Shown here: piece after piece, positions 26,559 to 37,020 of the stretch
How the letters are laid out: every line of letters starts with the position of its first letter
Position numbering within the stretch: the first letter of the stretch is position 1
Assembly (NCBI GenBank): GCA_003604995.1
Contig: QZJD01000005.1
Coordinates: 1 to 64,000 of the forward strand
From: Desulfobulbus sp.
GTDB taxonomy: Bacteria > Desulfobacterota > Desulfobulbia > Desulfobulbales > Desulfobulbaceae
Reading direction: 5' to 3'
DNA: 64,000 nucleotides
The notes under the pieces: generated by a model
The model's input: the letters and a program-made list of their open reading frames with translations, nothing else
Told to the model about the DNA's origin: nothing
Database searches by the model: none
Position numbers and translations under genes: made by a program

Positions 26559-27623
26559 TCACAATATCAGTTCCGGGCCCGGCGCTAGCGGACGGTCATG
26601 ATGTCTCGCCCTGATCCCCCTGATCTCCCGGAGATTTTTGATGAAGCAATCAAGCACCTCCGGATTGAAATGGGACTCGCGGCCGGCGGTCATGATCGCC
26701 AGGACCTGTTCTTCCGGCAGGGCGTTCCGGTAGACCCGGTCATTGCTCAGGGCGTCGTACACGTCAGCTACGGCGACGATCTGCGCGGCCGGGGGAATGG
26801 CATCGCCGGCAAGGCCGAAGGGGTAGCCGGAACCATCCCACTTTTCATGATGATACAGAGCAATGTCATGGGCCATGGCCAGAAGGGGGATCTCCGTGTC
26901 GCCGAGAATCTGGGCGCCGATGAGAGGATGTTTCTTGATGATCGCAAATTCATCGTCGTTCAGGCGCCCGGGTTTGCGCAGGATGCTGTCCGGAATCCCG
27001 ATTTTTCCGACATCGTGCATGGGGGCGGCAATGCGGATATTGTCCGCCTCATCCTGGCTCCAGCCCAACTCCCTGGCCAGTACGGCGCTGAACAGGCCGA
27101 TTCGGCGGATGTGCTCGCCGGTTTCCTCGTCTCGATAGCCCGAGGCGGAGATGAGGTGCAGGGCGATCTGTTCCTCCCGGTTTCGGATATCCGCGGTCCG
27201 ATCCCGTACTTCCTGCTCCAGCCGCCTGGAGTAATCGGCATGGACGAGGATGATCCGGCGCCGTTCCAGGGCATTGAGGACATTGATTACCAGTTCGTTT
27301 CGATCAAAGGGCTTGATGATGTAGCCGAAGGCGCCTTTCTCCAGGGTTGCCACCGCTGTCTCCCTGCTGCCGATCGCGGTGGCCATGATGATCGCCGTAG
27401 CAGGAAACCTCCGCCGAACAATGTCGAGAAGGTCGATGCCCGACTGGCCGGGCATCATGATGTCGGTCACCACCAGGTCGTATTGATGTTCTTCCAGCCT
27501 GGATACCGCCTGAAGAACATTGTGGGCTGTATCGCAGGCAATCCCCTCCCGGTTCAGCCAGATGGCGATCATTCGGCACAGGTCGGGTTCATCGTCCACA
27601 GCGAGCACCCTGACCGCAGCCAT
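26559..27623 (-). CDS. response regulator with HD-GYP cyclic-di-GMP phosphodiesterase domain
   Basis: A 354-residue two-domain regulator. The receiver is at about 5-120, with phosphorylation site D54 in VVTDIMMPG, followed by a short coiled linker. The HD-GYP output domain has HDVGKIGIPD, HHEKWDGSGYP and VADVYDALSNDRVYR, so all catalytic and GYP signature residues are present. It should hydrolyse c-di-GMP under control of a partner kinase, probably one of the two kinases encoded directly downstream. ATG 27623 is preferred because AGGA lies 8 bases upstream; ATG 27656 is in frame but has no binding site. With a polysaccharide locus next door, an effect on biofilm formation is plausible. Confidence 0.88.
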   Translation of the reverse strand: MAAVRVLAVDDEPDLCRMIAIWLNREGIACDTAHNVLQAVSRLEEHQYDLVVTDIMMPGQSGIDLLDIVRRRFPATAIIMATAIGSRETAVATLEKGAFGYIIKPFDRNELVINVLNALERRRIILVHADYSRRLEQEVRDRTADIRNREEQIALHLISASGYRDEETGEHIRRIGLFSAVLARELGWSQDEADNIRIAAPMHDVGKIGIPDSILRKPGRLNDDEFAIIKKHPLIGAQILGDTEIPLLAMAHDIALYHHEKWDGSGYPFGLAGDAIPPAAQIVAVADVYDALSNDRVYRNALPEEQVLAIMTAGRESHFNPEVLDCFIKNLREIRGIRARHHDRPLAPGPELIL

Positions 27624-27656
27624 GTCGATGGTCCTGGGGTCATTGTAGATATTCAT

Positions 27657-28150: not shown

Positions 28151-30133
28151 ATGGCTGAAACGATCCGAATTCTGCTGGTGGAAGATCTGCCCACGGACGC
28201 GGAGCTTGTTGAGAGGGAAGTCCGGGGCGGCCTGCCCGGGAGCCAGATTTTATGGGTAGATAACCCGCGCGACTATCTCGCTGCCCTCAACACCTTTCAG
28301 CCGGACGCCATCCTGTCCGACTACTCACTGCCTGGTTTTGACGGGATGAACGCCCTGCTTCTGGCGATGGAACGGATGCCGGAAACGCCTTTTATTCTGG
28401 TCACGGGCGCCATGAACGAGGAGACGGCGGTGGCGTGCATGAAGGCCGGGGCCTGGGATTATATCCTCAAAGACCATTTGCAACGCCTGGTGCCCGCGAT
28501 TTTGAATTCGCTGGAGCGTGGCCGTCAACGCCGGGCACGCAAGGAGGCCGAGGAGGCGCTGGCGGCCAGCGAGGGTGAGTACCGCCGTCTCTCCCATGAA
28601 TTTCAGAGTCTGCTCGATGCATTACCCGACAGCCTTACCTTGATGGATAAAGACCTGAAGGTCCACTGGGCCAACAGTGCAGCATTGAAGTTGTTCGGAA
28701 AAAGGAAGGAGGGTCTGATTGGCCATCGATGTTTCTCTCTGCACAGCCAGGGTGCCGAACCCTGTCAGGACTGCCCGGTAACGGCGAGCTTTGCAAGCGG
28801 AGAACCCGCGAGCCTCGTCACCCCCACTGCCGACGGCAGAATCTGGGACCTCCGGAGCATCCCTCTGCGCGACGACCACGGGGAAATCTCCAGGGTAATC
28901 GAACTCGGCCGTGATATCACCGAGCACCGGAAACTTGAAGCCCAGCTTCGTCAGGCGCAGAAAATGGAATCAGTGGGCAGGCTCGCTGGAGGAATTGCTC
29001 ATGATTTCAATAATATGTTGACGATCATGATCGGCTACGGCGAGCAGGTGATGAGCCAGCTCAAGGAAGAGAACCAGGCGCGGAGCGACATTGCGGAAAT
29101 GGTAAAAGCAGCCCGTCGCTCGGCGGAACTGACCCGTCAGTTGCTGGCGTTTTCCCGCCAACAGGCTGTTTTGCCCCAGGTGATCGATCTGAACAAGCGA
29201 ATCAACAGCGGTCTGAAGATGCTGAAACGCCTGGTGGGGGAGGATATCGATCTCCATTTTATCCCGGCCGTCAAGCTCGACATGATTTACATTGATCCTG
29301 GCCAGATCGAGCAGATCCTCGCCAACCTGACGGTTAATGCCAGAGACGCCATCGTCGGCACGGGACTGATTCGCATCGAAACCGGCAACATCGTTCTTGA
29401 CGAATCATACTGTACTTTTCACGAAGGATTTGTGCCCGGCGATTATGTTGTGGTAACATTCAGTGATACCGGTTCGGGCATGGACCAGGATACCCAGCAG
29501 AAAATTTTTGAGCCGTTTTTCACCACCAAGGAGGAGGGCAAGGGAACCGGTTTGGGGTTGGCGACGGTGTACGGCATCGTCAAGCAGAACAACGGATTTA
29601 TCAACGTCTACAGCGAGCCGGGGGAAGGGACGACCTTTAAAATTTATTTTCCGCGCCATAGAGGATCGGCCGGCGGGAGAAAAGAGGTGCGGATGGAGCA
29701 GGTCAGCGGCGGGTCCGAAACGCTGTTGCTCGTCGAGGATGAGGGTCAGATTTTGGCCATGTGCAAGCGCCTTCTGGAAAAACAGGGTTACCGTGTCCTG
29801 GCCGCCGGTTCGCCCGAGGAGGCTCTGACTCTGTCTCGGCAATTTGCCGGGGAGATTCATCTGCTGGTGAGTGATCTGATCATGCCGCACATGAACGGCC
29901 GGGAGCTCTACGAACAGATTCACGGTTGCCGGCCCGGCATCAGACTTCTGATCATGTCAGGATATACGGCGGATATCATCGCCAAAAGGGGCGGTCTGGT
30001 CGAAGGCGACCATTTCATCCAGAAGCCGTTCACCAACACGGATTTCATCGGCAAGGTGGCGCAGGTCCTCGCTCAGGGCCAGAACGGAGAAGGGCTGCCG
30101 AGCGGCAATGAGGAGGGGCGCCATGACGGCTGA
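28151..30133 (+). CDS. hybrid histidine kinase: REC-PAS-HisKA-HATPase-REC
   Basis: A 660-residue soluble protein with receivers at both ends. REC 1 (1-120) starts TIRILLVEDLPTDAELV and has its Asp in AILSDYSLPG. The PAS domain (about 145-265) carries GHRCFSL...EPCQDCPV. H284 sits in [13 protein letters not shown], the ATPase has NLTVNARDAI and GTGLGLATVYG, and REC 2 has LLVSDLIMPHMNG. It receives phosphate at its N-terminal receiver from another kinase, or is regulated by it. ATG 28151 follows AAAAAGGG; a TTG at 28136 is the alternative. The next gene starts 11 bases before this one ends. REC 2 belongs to a different subfamily from the other local receivers. Confidence 0.88.
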   Translation: MAETIRILLVEDLPTDAELVEREVRGGLPGSQILWVDNPRDYLAALNTFQPDAILSDYSLPGFDGMNALLLAMERMPETPFILVTGAMNEETAVACMKAGAWDYILKDHLQRLVPAILNSLERGRQRRARKEAEEALAASEGEYRRLSHEFQSLLDALPDSLTLMDKDLKVHWANSAALKLFGKRKEGLIGHRCFSLHSQGAEPCQDCPVTASFASGEPASLVTPTADGRIWDLRSIPLRDDHGEISRVIELGRDITEHRKLEAQLRQAQKMESVGRLAGGIAHDFNNMLTIMIGYGEQVMSQLKEENQARSDIAEMVKAARRSAELTRQLLAFSRQQAVLPQVIDLNKRINSGLKMLKRLVGEDIDLHFIPAVKLDMIYIDPGQIEQILANLTVNARDAIVGTGLIRIETGNIVLDESYCTFHEGFVPGDYVVVTFSDTGSGMDQDTQQKIFEPFFTTKEEGKGTGLGLATVYGIVKQNNGFINVYSEPGEGTTFKIYFPRHRGSAGGRKEVRMEQVSGGSETLLLVEDEGQILAMCKRLLEKQGYRVLAAGSPEEALTLSRQFAGEIHLLVSDLIMPHMNGRELYEQIHGCRPGIRLLIMSGYTADIIAKRGGLVEGDHFIQKPFTNTDFIGKVAQVLAQGQNGEGLPSGNEEGRHDG

Positions 30134-30821
30134 CCGGGAAAAACAGGCTGAATGCGCCAAGGTTTGTGAAAAAGAGTCTGCAGGCGGGACGATGCGGGAG
30201 ATTGTCCACTCTCTCAACAATGTTCTGGCGGTGATCCAACTCAATGCCTCCATGGCGCTGGAAAGCAGGGCCGGGGAAGATGCCATGGAGGAAATCGGGG
30301 AAATACTGGACGCTGTTGCCCGGGGCAGGGAACTGGTCAGGGATCTGTCCGATATGCAGCATCCCGGCCCGGCCGTGTGCCGGGCTGAAGAGAGCGCGTC
30401 TCGGGTTTCTCCTGCCCTGAACATGTCCGGTGGCATGGCTGCCGATCGGTCAGGAGAGGGAGCGAAGATCCTGTTTGTTGATGATGAAGTCGAGTTGGCC
30501 CGGCTGGGACAGAGGCTCCTGATAAAAAATGGGTATCAGGTAGAATTTTTCACGGACAGCCAGGCCGCTTTAGAGAGATTCGCGGCCAATCCTCAAGAAT
30601 ATGCCCTGGTGATCACCGATCAGAATATGCCGGGTTTGAAAGGGTCGGAACTTGCGCACCGGATTTTGCAGGTCCGGCCGGAGATGCCGATCCTCCTCTG
30701 CACCGGTTTCAGTGCGGGCATTGCTCGCCGGAACTTGCTGGAACAGGGCTTTTGCGGCTTGCTGGTAAAGCCGTACCAGCCGAAGGAATTGCTCTCCGCG
30801 GTTCGTGGCGTTATTGCGTGA
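30123..30821 (+). CDS. kinase-like dimerisation helix pair fused to a receiver, no ATPase domain
   Basis: A 232-residue protein. Residues 20-85 look like a HisKA dimerisation domain with H29 in MREIVHSLNNVLAVIQ, comparable to [11 protein letters not shown] in the neighbouring kinases. A linker leads directly to a receiver (about 115-230) with D166 in LVITDQNMPGLKG. The catalytic ATPase domain between them is absent, with no trace of N, G1 or G2 boxes. It could accept phosphate at H29 from a partner kinase in trans, act as a phosphotransfer protein, or form mixed dimers. ATG 30123 follows GGAGGGG and overlaps the upstream hybrid kinase by 11 bases, so partnership with it is likely. Confidence 0.8.
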   Translation: MTADREKQAECAKVCEKESAGGTMREIVHSLNNVLAVIQLNASMALESRAGEDAMEEIGEILDAVARGRELVRDLSDMQHPGPAVCRAEESASRVSPALNMSGGMAADRSGEGAKILFVDDEVELARLGQRLLIKNGYQVEFFTDSQAALERFAANPQEYALVITDQNMPGLKGSELAHRILQVRPEMPILLCTGFSAGIARRNLLEQGFCGLLVKPYQPKELLSAVRGVIA

Positions 30822-30822
30822 A

Positions 30823-30880
30823 GCGGTGAGGTGCAGGGACGTGATCCCTTTTCTCATCCCTGCCGCCGATCGCTCACCGC
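30823..30880. terminator. nested inverted repeat between convergent genes
   Basis: Outer arms GCGGTGAG (30823-30830) and CTCACCGC (30873-30880) enclose inner arms GCAGGGA (30833-30839) and TCCCTGC (30857-30863). The structure starts just after the stop of the receiver gene and covers the last codons of the convergent REC-PAS gene. There is no long T-run. It is a plausible bidirectional terminator or 3' stabiliser. Confidence 0.45.
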
Positions 30881-31699
30881 ACGAGCTATGTACACCCCTC
30901 CGACCACTGTTTTTTCATCTACATCCAGATACGGCGTCATGTTTACTTCGAACTCTGCTTGCAGCCGTTCGTCATAAAAAATTCCCTTTTGAGAAACTCC
31001 GGCAAGAAGTGCCTCCATGTTCCGCCTGGCCGCATCCTGGTCGCTGAAGCCCTGCGTGCTCAGGTAACAGGTTCTGCCGACTATTTCCGAGGGTCCCTTA
31101 CCCAGCATGGCCGCCATTGCCTTGTTCACCCTGACCAGGCAATGTCTTCGGTCGATCAGGGCAATCTGTTCGGTCAGGGAATCCACGGTACGTTCCCATT
31201 CCCGTTTGGCGTGGATGATCATTTTTTCCAGCCGTTGTTTGGCCTCCAGCTCTTTTTTCAAGGCGTTATTGGCTTTGCGCAGGGCATTCTCCATGGTTTC
31301 GTTATAGCCGTACGTCATTTGCGCCTGCATCAGAGCTCGCTCGATCCGATTCATCAGAAACTCTATGTTTTCGATGGGTTTGGTAATATAATCCCATGCC
31401 CCGGAACGAAGGGCGTTAATGATGTCCTCCTTGGCGCCGACGCCGGAAAAGATGATTACGGGTGTTTTAGGCGATTCCATCACGATTTCTTCGAGCAGGT
31501 CAAAGCCGTCCATGACCGGCATGCGAAGATCGGTCAGAATCAGTGCCGGCCGGTTCTTGCGGAATAAGGAGAGCGCTTCTTCGCCGTTTCGGGCCTCCAG
31601 GGTTTCATAGCCTTTTTGTTTGATGAACTTGGCTACGGATTTACGTAAATACTCATCGTCTTCCGCGATCAGAATTTTTGTCTCAGCATTTTCCAGCAT
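30854..31699 (-). CDS. response regulator with PAS output (REC-coiled coil-PAS)
   Basis: A 281-residue protein. The receiver is at 5-120 with D57 in [13 protein letters not shown], a charged coiled coil spans about 130-170, and a PAS domain covers about 170-278 (TEQIALIDRRHCLVRVNKAM, then EIVGRTCYLS). There is no DNA-binding or enzymatic output, so it is probably an adaptor that passes a signal through protein contact. The PAS domain keeps the first cysteine (GRTC) of the local cysteine-PAS family but not the later CxxCP pair. ATG 31699 is chosen because the receiver begins at once; the frame is open to 31732. Confidence 0.8.
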   Translation of the reverse strand: MLENAETKILIAEDDEYLRKSVAKFIKQKGYETLEARNGEEALSLFRKNRPALILTDLRMPVMDGFDLLEEIVMESPKTPVIIFSGVGAKEDIINALRSGAWDYITKPIENIEFLMNRIERALMQAQMTYGYNETMENALRKANNALKKELEAKQRLEKMIIHAKREWERTVDSLTEQIALIDRRHCLVRVNKAMAAMLGKGPSEIVGRTCYLSTQGFSDQDAARRNMEALLAGVSQKGIFYDERLQAEFEVNMTPYLDVDEKTVVGGVYIARAVSDRRQG

Positions 31700-31762
31700 G
31701 GTGGACGCTCCGTTCGTATTTGTTGAAAGCACGGGTTGGTTTCAAGGCAATCCCGCTCCTGG

Positions 31763-32635
31763 TTACTGCAACATCACCTTGAGCCACTGCATGTCTCTGC
31801 TGTTGACGTTGCCTTTTTCCGCTTGATCCTGAGTCATTACGTCGTACAGGGGGAGTTGTGCCTGTGCCTTGCAATCGGGGCAAAGGCTGGATGAAATCTC
31901 CACTTCAGCGTGTTCCTGAAGGTACGATTCGATCTGTTCCCAATATCCCTTGTCATCGCGAACCTGTTTACAGGAAGGGCAGATGGGCAGCATGCCCTTC
32001 AGTTGCTTGACCTGTTCCAGGGATGCGCGCAGTTCATCAATCAGGCGCTGCTTGTCCTGTTCGAGCCTTTTTCTTTCGGTGATGTCGTTGTAGGATTCAA
32101 TGATACCGACCAGATCGCCGAAGGCGTTTCTAACGGGTTTTGCCTTGATGAGGAAGTGGCGGCGGATTCCGTCAAGAATTCTTGCTCCTTCGCTGGTGAC
32201 CTCTTTTTCGCCTTTTTTGATCCGATCAAGAGGGGAGTTGGTGATTCTGCACGCCTCATCCTCTTGACCCGAACGGCCATTGCCTTTTATTTCGTCGTGC
32301 ATGGCCCTGCCCAATGTTTCCAGGTAGGGGGTGTTGGCATCGATGATATTCCCCTTGAAATCGATGATGCACATCGGAAAGGAATGGTTGAAGGCGTTCC
32401 TGAGGAGCTTCTGTTCCTTTTCATAAAAAAATATCCTGAAGAGGATCATATAGAGGAGGATGCTGAATGACACGATCAGGATTCGGGTATAAACGTTTTC
32501 GAAGATTTTGTTGAACGTTTCCGAATCCTCAGCAAATATGCCGGGGATGAACATGGAGGCAACAAGGGAATTGACCACCCAGATCAACAATCCGAAGATG
32601 AAGAGAAACGGGAGGCTTTGCAGTATGCGTTTCAT
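31763..32635 (-). CDS. membrane PAS protein with C-terminal four-cysteine motif
   Basis: A 290-residue protein with two membrane helices (about 8-30 and 52-71), a PAS domain (about 80-185) ending in a short coiled coil, and a compact tail. The tail begins CPSCKQVRDDKGYWEQIE near residue 216 and ends SSLCPDC near 254, giving two CxxC pairs about 33 residues apart that look like a zinc site. This tail occurs at the ends of many PAS and receiver proteins of anaerobes and has no established function that I know of. There is no kinase, cyclase or DNA-binding domain. ATG 32635 follows AAAAGGAAACGCACC. The REC-PAS gene is 63 bases downstream. Confidence 0.75.
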   Translation of the reverse strand: MKRILQSLPFLFIFGLLIWVVNSLVASMFIPGIFAEDSETFNKIFENVYTRILIVSFSILLYMILFRIFFYEKEQKLLRNAFNHSFPMCIIDFKGNIIDANTPYLETLGRAMHDEIKGNGRSGQEDEACRITNSPLDRIKKGEKEVTSEGARILDGIRRHFLIKAKPVRNAFGDLVGIIESYNDITERKRLEQDKQRLIDELRASLEQVKQLKGMLPICPSCKQVRDDKGYWEQIESYLQEHAEVEISSSLCPDCKAQAQLPLYDVMTQDQAEKGNVNSRDMQWLKVMLQ

Positions 32636-32703: not shown

Positions 32704-33204
32704 TCAGAAAACGATTAGTTCAGGTTTGTGAAATTTACCGCGGTAGAATTCATTTTTTTGAGCCTCCCAGAAGACGACCTCACGATTCTCGTTGACGAAA
32801 ACATTGGCCACGTGACGCTCGCCTCGCGCCGTGGTGATGTACATGACGCCGAAGGCATAGTTTCGCATCGGCACCATGGCAGCGATGGCGTAATCGTCGC
32901 AATCCCAGTCTGGTCGGACATGAAACCGGCTCATGGCAGCCACCTTGTCGTTATCGGCAAGGGCGTATTTGGCATCACTCAGCTTGATGAACACGTTGCC
33001 GAAATAGCCGGTCAGGATTTTGTGCAGTTCATGGGCGCTGATCTCTGTCCCCCTGCCGCGGTTTTCCGTGGAAACGGACACAAACATGTCAACATCGGTC
33101 CGGTGGTAGCTGCACGCGGCCGTCAGGACGAGCTGAGTCATAATGAAAACAACGGTCAGGGCGCGGGCAACAGTCTGTCGTTCATGGCGCATCATCCTTT
33201 TCAT
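32704..33204 (-). CDS. lipoprotein with cysteine-peptidase-like DCDDYA motif
   Basis: A 166-residue predicted lipoprotein with signal FIMTQLVLTAAC and lipid cysteine C31. The mature part has WDCDDYAIAAM, then NYAFGVMYITTARGERHVANVFVNEN and VVFWEAQKNEFY. A Cys in an acidic DCDDYA helix, a later His before a strand and a Glu/Gln on the next strand follow the order of papain or transglutaminase-like folds. They recall the peptidase domain of MOA-type agglutinins. Activity is an inference. The start overlaps the stop of the upstream small gene by 4 bases, so they form a pair. The region is lower in GC than its surroundings. Confidence 0.6.
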   Translation of the reverse strand: MKRMMRHERQTVARALTVVFIMTQLVLTAACSYHRTDVDMFVSVSTENRGRGTEISAHELHKILTGYFGNVFIKLSDAKYALADNDKVAAMSRFHVRPDWDCDDYAIAAMVPMRNYAFGVMYITTARGERHVANVFVNENREVVFWEAQKNEFYRGKFHKPELIVF

Positions 33205-33632
33205 AACCCACCTCCGTGATCAAGACGTTCGCAATGATACAAATGATTCGGATAGGAATGTTTGGTGCTGTATCCTGATAATTTATTGATTATCTCCGTA
33301 ATCTGTTGATAGTCGTTGTGGGCAAATTCGATAAAACGGGGATGGAGGAGATATGATTTATGAATCATTTCCTTGTTGTCGTTACATAGGATGATAATGA
33401 CACGATTTCCGGTAAAAATATCTTTAATTTTAATTAATAAATCAATATCATGTAATTTAGTAATTACTAAAATGAAAAGCTCGGCCAGGTCTGAAGGAAA
33501 TTTTGAATATTTATTTTTATTATCAATAGTATGGATAACAAAATTATCTTGACAATTTCTTGCAGTATTGATGCATCGTATGAGCCTTGATGCCTCATCA
33601 GCCGACTCTGACGTATAAAGATGAATGTTCAT
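33201..33632 (-). CDS. small AT-rich gene, possible degenerate receiver-like fold, unrecognised
   Basis: A 143-residue protein without signal peptide or membrane helix. Alternating hydrophobic strands and helices (DLAELFILVITKLHD, NRVIIILCNDNKEM, HPRFIEFAHNDY) resemble a flavodoxin/receiver-like fold, but no phosphorylatable Asp pocket is visible. Base composition is clearly richer in A and T than the neighbours, which suggests recent acquisition. ATG 33632 is preferred because GGGAG lies about 9 bases upstream; the frame is open to 33719. It is coupled to the cysteine-peptidase-like lipoprotein. The upstream gap holds a strong palindrome. Confidence 0.55.
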   Translation of the reverse strand: MNIHLYTSESADEASRLIRCINTARNCQDNFVIHTIDNKNKYSKFPSDLAELFILVITKLHDIDLLIKIKDIFTGNRVIIILCNDNKEMIHKSYLLHPRFIEFAHNDYQQITEIINKLSGYSTKHSYPNHLYHCERLDHGGGL

Positions 33633-33793
33633 GCTCTGTTCTCCCGCCAATACTTCAAAGGGATTGCTGTATGTGTTCTCTGTCCTATGGTAAAGCAGGA
33701 TGCGTGCCAGCTTGCACAAATGGAACTTAGTGACGATAATTCAGTATGTTGAACGAATAACAGATTCTCTGGCTGGTCAAAGGGGAGATGCGA

Positions 33794-33834
33794 TTTGTTT
33801 ACAAAAGTTGACAGTGTTCACATTTGTGAACACT
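33794..33834. promoter_or_regulatory. double palindrome in the gap upstream of the small AT-rich gene
   Basis: TTTGT-TT-ACAAA (33794-33805) is followed by AGTGTTCACA-TT-TGTGAACACT (33813-33834), a perfect 10-bp inverted repeat with a 2-base centre. A plus-strand TTGACA (33808-33813) touches the larger palindrome. The 252-base gap (33633-33884) separates the end of the NtrC-type regulator from the start of the small AT-rich gene. The form is that of an operator for a dimeric transcription factor, about 165 bases upstream of that gene. Confidence 0.6.
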
Positions 33835-33884
33835 ATGTGCGGGATTGTGTACAGGATGAGAAGGGGATCGTAGAAAAAGATGTG

Positions 33885-35279
33885 TTATCTGCTGGCGGGT
33901 TCGTGTTTTTTAAGGAGCTGATAGAGGCGGGTGCGGGAGAGGCCGGATATGCGGCAGGCGTCCGTTACGCTGTTGCGGGCAAACGTCATCAGGTCGCGAA
34001 GATAGGCCCTTTCAGCCGCGGATTTGTACTCGGACCAGGACGGCGGCGGGGTTGTGTCGTCTGCGGAGAATTGAGCAGGGGGTGCCGCGGGCGTTGGGCG
34101 AATGGCCGCCTGGGCCTGCAGGACGCGGAGATGCTCGGGCAGGTGCCTGGTGAAGAGGGTGTGATGGTTGACGGCGTTGACAAAGGCATGCTCAATAACC
34201 TGAAATAACTCTCGAATATTTCCAGGCCAGGGGTAATTCGTCAGCGCGTTGATAAAATCCGGCGCCATGCCTTTTGTATCGAGCCCGTGGCGCTGGCAGA
34301 GTTTTTCCAGATACGCGACGGTCAGATCCTTGACGTCCCCTTGCCGGTCTCGCAGAGGAGGAAGATGGATCCAAATCCCCTGCAGCCGAAAGAGAAGATC
34401 GCTGCGGAATATGCCGTTACGAACTCCTTCGTCGAGGTTGCGATTGGTCGCGGCCACCACCCTGAAATCACTTTTGATTTCCCTGGTGTCACCCACCGGG
34501 CGATAGCGATGCTCCTGGAGTACCCGCAGGAAGTTTTTTTGCAAGCCGATGGGCAATTCGCCGATCTCGTCGAGAAAAAGGGTCCCGCCGTCGGCATGTC
34601 TGATCAAGCCGTCTCTCGCCTTGTCCGCTCCGGTAAATGCGCCCCGGGCGTGACCGAACAGGGTGCTTTCGATGAGTGTTTCCGGGAGGGCCGCGCAGTC
34701 GACCACCACGAAGTTGCCCCCGGCACGCTGGCTGTTGTCGTGAATGACCCGAGCAAAAACTTCCTTGCCTGTGCCGGTTTCACCGGACAGCAGGACGCTG
34801 GTGTCGCAGGCGGCGGCCTTGGCGACCAGGTCGAGGCTGGCGAGCAACTGCGGGCTGTTACCGATGATGCCGCCTCGTTTCAGGGCCACCGGTATGGTTT
34901 TGATTCGTTGTTTTTCCGCCCGGTATTCGAGGGCGCGGGTCAGGTGCAGCAAAAGCTCCCGCACAACGTTCGGTTTTTCAATATAGCTCCAGGCTCCGCT
35001 GGAGATGGCCTGTTGGGCGCCGTTGGGGTCTCCCTTGCCGGTGATGATGATGACTTCGGGTGCGGAGGGGACGGTTTTGAACCCGGGCAAAAAGTCCAGG
35101 CCGTTGCCGTCTGGCATCTGGACGTCAAGGAACACCACGTCAAAGGCATTCTCGCGAGCCATGCGCAGCCCCTCGTTCAGGGTCACCGTCCCGCGGGCAT
35201 GGTGACCGGCTCGCCGCAGGTGCTCGGTCAGCATCCCGCAAAGGACCTGATCGTCATCTACGACCAGGACGTCAGCCAT
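33885..35279 (-). CDS. NtrC-family sigma-54 response regulator (REC-AAA+-HTH)
   Basis: A 464-residue activator of sigma-54 RNA polymerase. The receiver (1-115) has D52 in VVFLDVQMPDG. The AAA+ domain (about 135-370) has Walker A GETGTGKE, the sigma-54 contact loop GAFTGA and Walker [12 protein letters not shown]. The C-terminal Fis-type helix-turn-helix ends SVTDACRISGLSRTRLYQLLKK. ATG 35279 overlaps the stop of the hybrid kinase by 8 bases, making this kinase its natural partner. The frame is open to 35309, but the receiver begins right at 35279. It is one of two DNA-binding regulators in the window. Confidence 0.92.
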   Translation of the reverse strand: MADVLVVDDDQVLCGMLTEHLRRAGHHARGTVTLNEGLRMARENAFDVVFLDVQMPDGNGLDFLPGFKTVPSAPEVIIITGKGDPNGAQQAISSGAWSYIEKPNVVRELLLHLTRALEYRAEKQRIKTIPVALKRGGIIGNSPQLLASLDLVAKAAACDTSVLLSGETGTGKEVFARVIHDNSQRAGGNFVVVDCAALPETLIESTLFGHARGAFTGADKARDGLIRHADGGTLFLDEIGELPIGLQKNFLRVLQEHRYRPVGDTREIKSDFRVVAATNRNLDEGVRNGIFRSDLLFRLQGIWIHLPPLRDRQGDVKDLTVAYLEKLCQRHGLDTKGMAPDFINALTNYPWPGNIRELFQVIEHAFVNAVNHHTLFTRHLPEHLRVLQAQAAIRPTPAAPPAQFSADDTTPPPSWSEYKSAAERAYLRDLMTFARNSVTDACRISGLSRTRLYQLLKKHEPASR

Positions 35280-36861
35280 GATCAAGAACCTTCCTGACGA
35301 TTTCGGCAAGTTCCCGCCTGACCACCGGCTTCATGATATATTCCCGGATGCCCAGGGCCAGGGCCTGCTTCCGGTCCAGGTTCTCGCTGAAACCGGTGCA
35401 CATGATGACGGGCATCTTCGGTCGGAGAGCAAGGATCTCCCGGGCGAGTTCCTTGCCGGTCAACCCGGGCATGGTCATGTCAGTGATGATCAGGTCGAAG
35501 GAATCAGGGGCGGCCTGAAACGCTTCAAGGGCTGCCCGGCTGTCACTGTGGGCGGTTACCTGGTAGCCGAGCTCATGGAGGCAGCGTTTCAGCCATGCGA
35601 CAAGCTCGGATTCGTCATCAATGACCAGAATCTGCTCCTCGCCGCGAGGGAGAGGCCCGGTGGGCGGAAGAGTCGCCGCTGCCTCCTCGGTCAGCGCCGG
35701 CAGGATAATCTGAAAATCAGCGCCCTTGCCTTTTTCGCTGCTGACCCAGATATCACCTCCCAGCGACTTGACTATGCCGTGCACCACCGACAGGCCAAGT
35801 CCGGTTCCTTCGCTCAGCGGCTTGGTTGTAAAAAAAGGTTCGAATACCCGATCCAGATTATCCCGGTCAATGCCATGCCCGGTGTCCTTGACCCGCAGAA
35901 GCAGGTAACCGGCGATGTTTCGCCCCCCGTCCCTGGGTCGGTAACCGCTCGGCAGACTTTGTAGATGAGAGAGGGAAACGGTCAGCTCTCCACCGCTTTC
36001 CCGCATGGCATATCTGGCGTTGGTGCAGAGGTTCATGAGCACTTGATGGATCCTTCCCGGGTCAGCCAGCACTGGTGGGCATTCGGCATCCACCCAGTCC
36101 CTGATGACTATGGTTGCCGGGAAGGACGCCTTGAGTAATTTCAGGATTTCCTTGAGGATGAACTGGATGTATACCGGTTTGGATTCATGATCGTCCTGCC
36201 GGCTGAAGGTGAGGATCTGCCTGACCAGTTCCGTGGCTCGGTTCGCCGCCTGGAGCACCTTGTCGAGATCCTGGCTGGGTTGGCTTTCCGCGGGGAGTTC
36301 CGCCTGCGCCATCTGGGCATAGCCATTGATGATCGCCAGGATGTTGTTGAAGTCGTGGGCAATCCCTCCAGCCAGGGTCCCGATGGCCTCCATTTTCTGG
36401 GAATGGTGCAGTTCTTCTGTTCGTTTTTTGATTTCCTCCTCGAGATAGTGCTGATAGCGCTTGTTTTCCCGGATAAGGTCGATTCGTTCCAGCGCACGGT
36501 TGATGGCATGCTCCAGAACGGAGACGTCCAGGATCGGTTTGACCAGGTAATCGGAAGCACCGAGCTGCAGGGTTTTCAGGGCGTCGTTGATACCGCCGGC
36601 CCCGGAAACGATGATCACTGGAAATTTTTCCAGATCGGTTCCCAGCTCGGCCAGGACCTCAAAGCCGTCCATGACCGGCATGCGCAGATCAAGCAGCATC
36701 AGGTCCGGCCGTTCCCGCCGGTACTTTTCCATTCCTTCCCGGCCGTTTCCAGCGGAAACGACATCGTAACCGAGATCCTTGAGAAGCTTGGTCGCACTTT
36801 TGCGCATCAGCAGGTCATCGTCGATGAGCAGAATTTTCTTGGTGCCGTCCGATTCGGTCAT
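35272..36861 (-). CDS. hybrid histidine kinase: REC-HisKA-HATPase-REC
   Basis: A 529-residue soluble kinase. The N-terminal receiver (about 8-125) has its Asp in [13 protein letters not shown], a coiled linker follows, and the histidine is H169 in [13 protein letters not shown]. The ATPase has [17 protein letters not shown] and [11 protein letters not shown]. The C-terminal receiver has [14 protein letters not shown] and belongs to the same paralogous set as those at 22067, 24599 and 30123. There is no sensor domain, so input probably arrives through the first receiver, perhaps from the five-PAS kinase encoded directly upstream. ATG 36861 is chosen by the start of the receiver; the frame is open to 36957 and no start has a strong binding site. 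Confidence 0.87.
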
Positions 36862-37020
36862 GTCGCGGTCCGTGGCTTTCAGCGGTTTGTCTTGTGATAC
36901 GCAGACCTGTATTCCCGGCATAGGGAGGCTCATGTCTGTCCGTGCGGGCTGAGGCATGCAACGGCTGGAGCGTATCGGTCAGTTTCCGGATGGTTTTTTG
37001 CAAGGCTTTATCTAGAGGAA

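What the first reader, a model, noticed from the sequence alone, without database searches (positions are those of the whole stretch)
30123..30821. ATPase-less DHp-receiver protein beside a REC-first hybrid kinase
The protein keeps a kinase-like dimerisation helix pair with H29 and a receiver with D166, but the ATPase domain is cleanly missing. It overlaps the upstream kinase by 11 bases. It could be a trans-phosphorylated relay, a substitute Hpt protein or a dominant partner in mixed dimers. Hybrid kinases in this island need a histidine relay partner and no classic Hpt domain is visible.
Basis: partly seen in the sequence, partly recalled or inferred. Interest (0 to 1): 0.65.

Follow-up and report, generated by a model that had tools for sequence, protein, structure and literature searches.

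The report
Kinase-derived phosphorelay protein without ATPase
This bacterial gene encodes the leftover half of a sensor kinase: it kept the histidine hinge and the receiver but lost the ATP-burning engine, a loss that happened at least three separate times in related bacteria, so it probably passes on or removes phosphate made by other kinases.

Summary
Confirmed. Window 30123-30821 (+) encodes 232 aa with a HisKA/DHp hairpin (H29), a flexible linker and an intact receiver (D166), and no HATPase domain. It overlaps the complete hybrid kinase 28151-30133 by 11 bp. A same-genus genome, colinear with window 13.6-27.7 kb, carries next to that block an ordinary DHp-CA-REC kinase that is the closest relative of both halves. 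The protein is therefore best read as a hybrid kinase that lost its CA domain in place. Ten of 258 Desulfobulbia genomes encode CA-less DHp-REC proteins. A receiver tree needs three changes for them, i.e. three losses. Seven belong to Desulfobulbus/Desulfogranum and precede an NtrC-type regulator; some are from cultured strains. Of the DHp residues invariant in kinases, only the phospho-His and the +4 Asn survive in all ten. The +1 acid (89/89 in kinases; published as needed only for kinase activity) is gone in eight. The +4 Asn is published as needed only for phosphatase activity. Best reading: an ATP-independent phosphoryl-exchange module, leaning towards phosphatase or sink over forward relay; direction untested. 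HisKA proteins without HATPase and phosphotransferases derived from kinases are known, so this is a new variant of a known kind.

The parts
30123..30821 (+). CA-less DHp-REC protein, 232 aa (P0001)
   Evidence: no HATPase match even at E 10
30111..30116 (+). Shine-Dalgarno-like AGGAGG, 6 nt before ATG 30123
   Evidence: read directly from sequence
30195..30359 (+). DHp hairpin (residues 25-79 of helices 2-47 and 52-79)
   Evidence: Pfam HisKA 26-79; AF2 helices
30207..30209 (+). H29 codon, predicted phospho-acceptor
   Evidence: kept in 10/10 CA-less proteins and all kinases
30210..30212 (+). S30 codon, replaces the +1 acid present in 89/89 CA-containing kinases
   Evidence: role of the acid from PMC3510030
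30219..30221 (+). N33 codon, +4 Asn (phosphatase residue of HisKA)
   Evidence: kept in 10/10 CA-less proteins
30360..30461 (+). Disordered linker where the CA domain would lie (residues 80-113)
   Evidence: pLDDT 46-57 over residues 81-110
30462..30818 (+). Receiver domain with D120/D121, D166, T194, K216 intact
   Evidence: Pfam Response_reg E 2e-20; residues
28151..30133 (+). Upstream hybrid kinase REC-PAS-HisKA-HATPase-REC (P0002), overlaps P0001 by 11 bp
26559..27656 (-). REC-HD-GYP response regulator, divergent neighbour also conserved in the syntenic relative (67% identity); possible output partner
   Evidence: Pfam; synteny
30835..30849 (+). Weak terminator-like hairpin after P0001
   Evidence: 2 found against 3.3 expected in shuffles, so not evidence by itself

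Best explanation
P0001 is a hybrid histidine kinase that lost its catalytic ATPase domain in place and now works without ATP as a phosphoryl-exchange module. Its DHp hairpin should dimerise and dock receivers. H29 would accept phosphoryl from a receiver, and N33 would let it hydrolyse receiver phosphate. D166 of its own receiver is the ancestral intramolecular partner of H29 and can hold the phosphoryl group. It is co-translated with the complete kinase P0002, so phosphoryl generated by that kinase, or by a kinase acting on the same receivers, would be drained (phosphatase or sink) or passed on through it. I lean to draining over forward relay, about 55:45. Shown: architecture, shared ancestry with a CA-containing kinase, repeated CA loss, residue retention and loss, intact receiver active site. 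Inferred: dimerisation, docking partners, phosphotransfer and phosphatase activity, direction.
For:: DHp hairpin plus intact REC, no CA; syntenic CA-containing ortholog in the same genus, REC clade support 100/98, DHp 49% against 38% or less for other kinases, docking residue L at +11 shared only by these two of 75; ten CA-less DHp-REC proteins, three changes needed on the REC tree, 0% of bootstrap trees with a single one. H and +4 N kept 10/10; +1 acid kept in only 2/10 against 89/89 in kinases; no other DHp position invariant in kinases is kept in all ten. PMC3510030: the acid is required only for kinase, the +4 T/N only for phosphatase; the receiver diverges no faster than that of its CA-containing sister (0.438 against 0.429 mean identity to others), and all phospho-site residues are intact; a Desulfobulbus MAG repeats the kinase-overlap-DHp-REC layout (14-bp overlap). 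PMC5898713 (PhyT), PMC3433190 (ChpT): kinases or kinase-like proteins acting as phosphotransferases.
Against: No biochemistry. P0001 itself is seen in one incomplete MAG (74% complete) only. An isolated EnvZ DHp showed no phosphatase activity in mammalian cells (PMC8971529, contrasting with the original report it cites). The DHp has diverged faster than in kinases (0.306 against 0.476 mean identity), which also fits relaxed constraint. Docking residues do not match the upstream kinase, so P0002 as the phosphoryl source is unproven. The window lacks an obvious cognate output gene on the same strand.
Confidence: 0.6

Rival explanations
1. Forward phosphorelay only: H29 is a substitute Hpt taking phosphoryl from the terminal REC of P0002 and passing it to a response regulator such as the divergent REC-HD-GYP, as in CckA-ChpT-CtrA. 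(This is the forward-direction special case of the best explanation, so its confidence overlaps with it.)
For: Co-translation with a hybrid kinase whose terminal receiver needs a histidine partner; no Hpt match on the window's contig; a TR kinase plus PR protein layout is an established phosphorelay (CbbSR/CbbRR1, PMC3018481).
Against: N33 is not needed for phosphotransfer (PMC3510030) yet is kept 10/10; the residue in ChpT that pairs with CckA N326 (H322+4) is Ser (PMC9981736); docking residues differ from P0002; Hpt domains exist elsewhere in the genome.
Confidence: 0.27
2. Split-kinase or mixed-dimer partner: P0001 heterodimerises with P0002 and H29 is phosphorylated in trans by its CA domain, or P0001 acts as a dominant inhibitor.
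For: 11-bp overlap and likely matched expression; CheA3/CheA4 precedent (PMC3591291).
Against: S30 replaces the acid needed for HisKA autokinase (PMC3510030); DHp identity to P0002 is only about 28%; P0002 has its own intact DHp, unlike CheA4, which lacks the phospho-acceptor domain.
Confidence: 0.12
3. Decaying remnant: the CA domain was deleted and the rest persists without function.
For: Seen in a single genome; fast DHp divergence; low-complexity linker.
Against: Intact ORF, ribosome site, normal codon bias, full receiver active site, receiver divergence equal to the sister kinase, H29 and N33 retained, same architecture kept as a diverged family in Desulfobulbus/Desulfogranum.
Confidence: 0.12
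4. DHp is only a dimerisation scaffold and the protein is a dimeric receiver whose phosphorylation state is the output.
For: Galperin et al. propose dimer formation for archaeal REC-PAS-HisKA proteins lacking HATPase (PMC5847659).
Against: H29 and N33 would have no reason to be the only kinase-invariant DHp residues kept in all ten.
Confidence: 0.1

Closest known systems
DHp-type histidine phosphotransferases (Spo0B, ChpT, PhyT)
   Same: DHp-like hairpin with a shuttling His, no autokinase, derived from or resembling histidine kinases (PMC3433190, PMC5898713).
   Different: ChpT keeps a non-ATP-binding CA-like domain and PhyT is thought to have a degenerated one; here the CA is absent and a receiver is fused. 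In the ten proteins the +4 Asn is kept; the equivalent ChpT residue is Ser (PMC9981736).
Archaeal 'HisKA, no HATPase' proteins, including REC-PAS-HisKA (AF_1472)
   Same: HisKA with conserved His but no HATPase, in some cases with a receiver (PMC5847659); unstudied experimentally according to that paper.
   Different: Receiver is N-terminal and PAS/GAF domains intervene; here the order is DHp then REC, in bacteria, with a traceable CA deletion.
Hybrid histidine kinases of HisKA-HATPase-REC type (relative L009 in the same genus)
   Same: Same DHp and REC; closest relatives; ancestral architecture.
   Different: CA domain missing; +1 acid lost.
CbbSR/CbbRR1/CbbRR2 phosphorelay (hybrid kinase plus PR protein)
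   Same: Hybrid kinase gene with a phosphotransfer-plus-receiver protein (PMC3018481).
   Different: Taken from the paper's domain shorthand only; the type of phosphotransfer domain was not compared here.
Split kinases CheA3/CheA4
   Same: Phospho-acceptor protein without a catalytic domain (PMC3591291).
   Different: CheA P1/Hpt type, and the partner lacks its own acceptor; here the neighbouring kinase is complete.

Membership tests
Hybrid histidine kinase | HisKA/DHp with phospho-acceptor His | tested here: met
   (Pfam score just below cut-off, supported by model and alignment)
Hybrid histidine kinase | HATPase_c domain | tested here: not met
   no Pfam match at E 10; disordered linker in its place
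Hybrid histidine kinase | Acidic residue next to His for autokinase | tested here: not met
   S30; 89/89 kinases have D/E
Hpt domain (PF01627) | Pfam Hpt match | tested here: not met
   absent from hits up to E 10
DHp-type histidine phosphotransferase (Spo0B/ChpT/PhyT) | DHp-like hairpin with shuttling His, no autokinase machinery | tested here: met
   (sequence and model only)
DHp-type histidine phosphotransferase (Spo0B/ChpT/PhyT) | Degenerate CA-like second domain | tested here: not met
   absent
DHp-type histidine phosphotransferase (Spo0B/ChpT/PhyT) | Demonstrated REC-His-REC transfer | not testable with these tools
   needs biochemistry
HisKA-without-HATPase proteins | HisKA with conserved His, no HATPase | tested here: met
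HisKA phosphatase | H-x-x-x-N/T with the T/N retained | tested here: met
   H29/N33; 10/10 CA-less proteins
HisKA phosphatase | Phosphatase activity on a receiver | not testable with these tools
   needs biochemistry
Split histidine kinase | Partner kinase lacking its own acceptor domain | tested here: not met
   P0002 has complete HisKA and HATPase

The most novel reading that the evidence does not exclude
Excision of the CA domain from hybrid kinases is a repeated evolutionary route to a distinct class of ATP-free DHp-REC phosphatases or phosphoryl sinks. It would have a convergent residue signature: +1 acid lost in two of three lineages; GG before His lost, His and +4 Asn kept, and Ala-to-Gly after the alpha2 Arg in all three. 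Such a protein would be controlled by the phosphorylation of its own receiver and would act on an adjacent regulator.
Probability: 0.33. Interest if true: 0.7.

Novelty: new variant of a known kind. Interest (0 to 1): 0.5.

Why it matters
It gives a clean natural experiment: the same signalling protein with and without its ATPase domain at the same chromosomal position, plus two further independent losses, some in cultured strains (Desulfobulbus elongatus DSM 2908, D. rhabdoformis DSM 8777, Desulfogranum japonicum DSM 18378). It makes testable whether a DHp domain freed of its kinase becomes a relay, a phosphatase or a sink, and it shows which DHp residues selection keeps once kinase activity is gone.

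Tried and rejected
Assembly artefact: considered unlikely, because both halves have the same syntenic ortholog, the linker between them is not HATPase sequence that repeats could collapse on, and the architecture recurs in cultured isolates. Missed HATPase: rejected, no match at E 10 and no fold in the linker. Hpt: rejected. Single origin of all CA-less proteins: rejected on the receiver tree (117 columns, so deep forks are weak, but 0% of bootstrap trees need only one change; three changes could formally be one gain and two losses, which would mean regaining a CA domain). P0002-P0001 as a conserved pair: rejected; none of six close P0002 homologues shows a DHp-REC gene within its fetched flanks. 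A phylum sample of 395 genomes gave no further member at E <= 1e-48. The genome-contig scan with the Desulfobulbus-type DHp found only five loci, all Desulfobulbus/Desulfogranum; that pattern cannot see other CA-less types, so wider rarity is not established. Fold search against PDB matched mainly receivers and says nothing about the hairpin; a sequence search with the DHp gave only a weak hit to a histidine kinase, 5idj (E 0.26). Plasmid tblastn was uninformative (receiver matches). Papers on HisKA proteins without HATPase were searched for prior art.

Full report
What is there. Pfam sees HisKA (26-79, marginal score) and Response_reg (116-228) and no HATPase. AlphaFold2 on an alignment of 73 rows gives two long helices (2-47, 52-79), a disordered stretch (80-113) and a receiver fold (115-231), mean pLDDT 85.6. 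A diverged homologue, from the genome identified below as Desulfogranum japonicum, gives the same layout (helices 8-35 and 40-64, receiver from 86, pLDDT 86.7).

Where it comes from. A genome of the same genus (G002) has a contig colinear with window 13.6-27.7 kb. The next gene there, in the place of P0002-P0001, is a 436-aa HisKA-HATPase-REC kinase (L028:14325-15635, also L009). Its REC is the closest REC to that of P0001 (53-54% identity, clade support 100/98) and its DHp the closest DHp (49%, others at most 38%). Within the first 22 residues from the His they share 14 positions, the next best kinase 10, and a Leu at the +11 docking position is found only in these two of 75 DHps. So P0001 is most simply this kinase with its CA domain removed; P0002 was gained upstream in this lineage or lost in the other. 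The contig of the relative ends 329 bp downstream, so synteny on that side could not be tested.

It is not alone. Profile searches of 258 Desulfobulbia genomes find ten CA-less DHp-REC proteins. Besides P0001 there are seven from two genera of the same family and two TM-PAS-DHp-REC proteins from another family (f14). The two genera are Desulfobulbus and Desulfogranum, judged from named loci and from an equal contig length (89,907) linking G034 to D. japonicum DSM 18378. In all seven an NtrC-type sigma-54 regulator follows downstream; in D. japonicum and D. rhabdoformis, where more of the flank was read, a small protein and a CheW-like protein follow too. In the window itself the related regulator (33885-35309, 50% identical) is preceded by a complete REC-HisKA-HATPase-REC kinase (35272-36957), so in Desulfobulbus/Desulfogranum the DHp-REC protein sits where this genus has a full kinase. 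On the receiver tree the ten need three changes, with 0% of bootstrap trees allowing one: three losses of the CA domain. In one Desulfobulbus MAG (L102) the DHp-REC gene again overlaps an upstream gene ending in a HATPase domain, by 14 bp.

What selection kept. Among 89 CA-containing kinase ORFs the residue after the His is D/E in 89 and the +4 residue is Asn in 89. In the ten CA-less proteins the acid survives in two (one lineage) and Asn in ten. Eleven DHp positions are invariant in the 32 kinase DHps of the alignment; only H29 and N33 are kept by all ten (R67 and L71 by nine). [quoted passage not shown] The rows are related, so these counts are not independent; they stand for three lineages, two of which lost the acid. 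The DHp of P0001 has diverged more than that of its ortholog (mean identity to other kinases 0.306 against 0.476) while its receiver has not (0.438 against 0.429), and all receiver active-site residues are intact.

How it most likely works. With no ATPase and no acid, neither autokinase nor trans-phosphorylation by a CA domain is likely. What remains is a receiver-docking His hairpin that can exchange phosphoryl with receivers and probably hydrolyse it, tethered by a flexible linker to its ancestral receiver partner. I put 0.6 on this ATP-independent exchange module and lean slightly to net draining because the phosphatase Asn is kept although transfer does not need it. Forward relay is the main rival: the gene is co-translated with a complete hybrid kinase, the contig shows no Hpt, and hybrid kinase plus phosphotransfer-receiver protein is an established relay layout (PMC3018481). 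An isolated EnvZ DHp was reported long ago to be a phosphatase but failed to show this in mammalian cells (PMC8971529), so isolated-DHp phosphatase activity cannot be assumed. The divergently transcribed REC-HD-GYP protein (26559-27656) is a stable neighbour across the two genomes (67% identity) and the best guess for an output; this is inference.

Comparison with the known. HisKA proteins lacking HATPase are known from archaea, some with an N-terminal receiver, none studied experimentally according to Galperin et al. (PMC5847659). [quoted passage not shown] ChpT is a histidine phosphotransferase with a kinase-like fold, and PhyT is suspected to be a kinase with a degenerated catalytic domain (PMC3433190, PMC5898713). 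New here are complete excision of the CA domain with the fused receiver retained, its in-place origin, its repetition, and the selective retention of His and +4 Asn. Hence: new variant of a known kind.

Limits. P0001 is known from a single incomplete MAG. The library search for earlier descriptions covered only openly licensed papers. Heterodimer and homodimer modelling was not available. The survey outside the class was one sample of 395 genomes and one pattern scan.

Noticed in passing
window 33201-36957 (-): REC-HisKA-HATPase-REC kinase, NtrC-type regulator and a small protein form the same locus in which Desulfobulbus/Desulfogranum carry a CA-less DHp-REC protein in place of the kinase.
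   Followed up: yes
A6 alignment, P0001 residues 25, 26, 35, 68 (window 30195-30200, 30225-30227, 30324-30326): All three CA-less lineages lost the GG pair before the His, and 9 of 10 proteins have Gly instead of Ala right after the conserved alpha2 Arg. The reason is unexplained.
   Followed up: partly
window 30854-31732 (-): REC-coiled coil-PAS protein with neither transmitter nor output domain, convergent to P0001.
   Followed up: no
window 31763-32635 (-): Membrane PAS protein ending in a Cys-rich segment (CPSCK...CPDC) with no Pfam match there.
   Followed up: no
L014:54-2112 and L034:1489-3589: The TM-PAS-DHp-REC genes of family f14 directly follow a gene that reads like 6-phosphogluconolactonase (10-bp gap in L014, 8-bp overlap in L034), an odd partner for a signalling protein. 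The enzyme name is from memory, not searched.
   Followed up: no
window 30360-30461: The linker starts HPGPAVCRAEE, resembling the CA-REC linker DPGPARDVLVAEE of the ortholog, a weak hint at the deletion end point.
   Followed up: no
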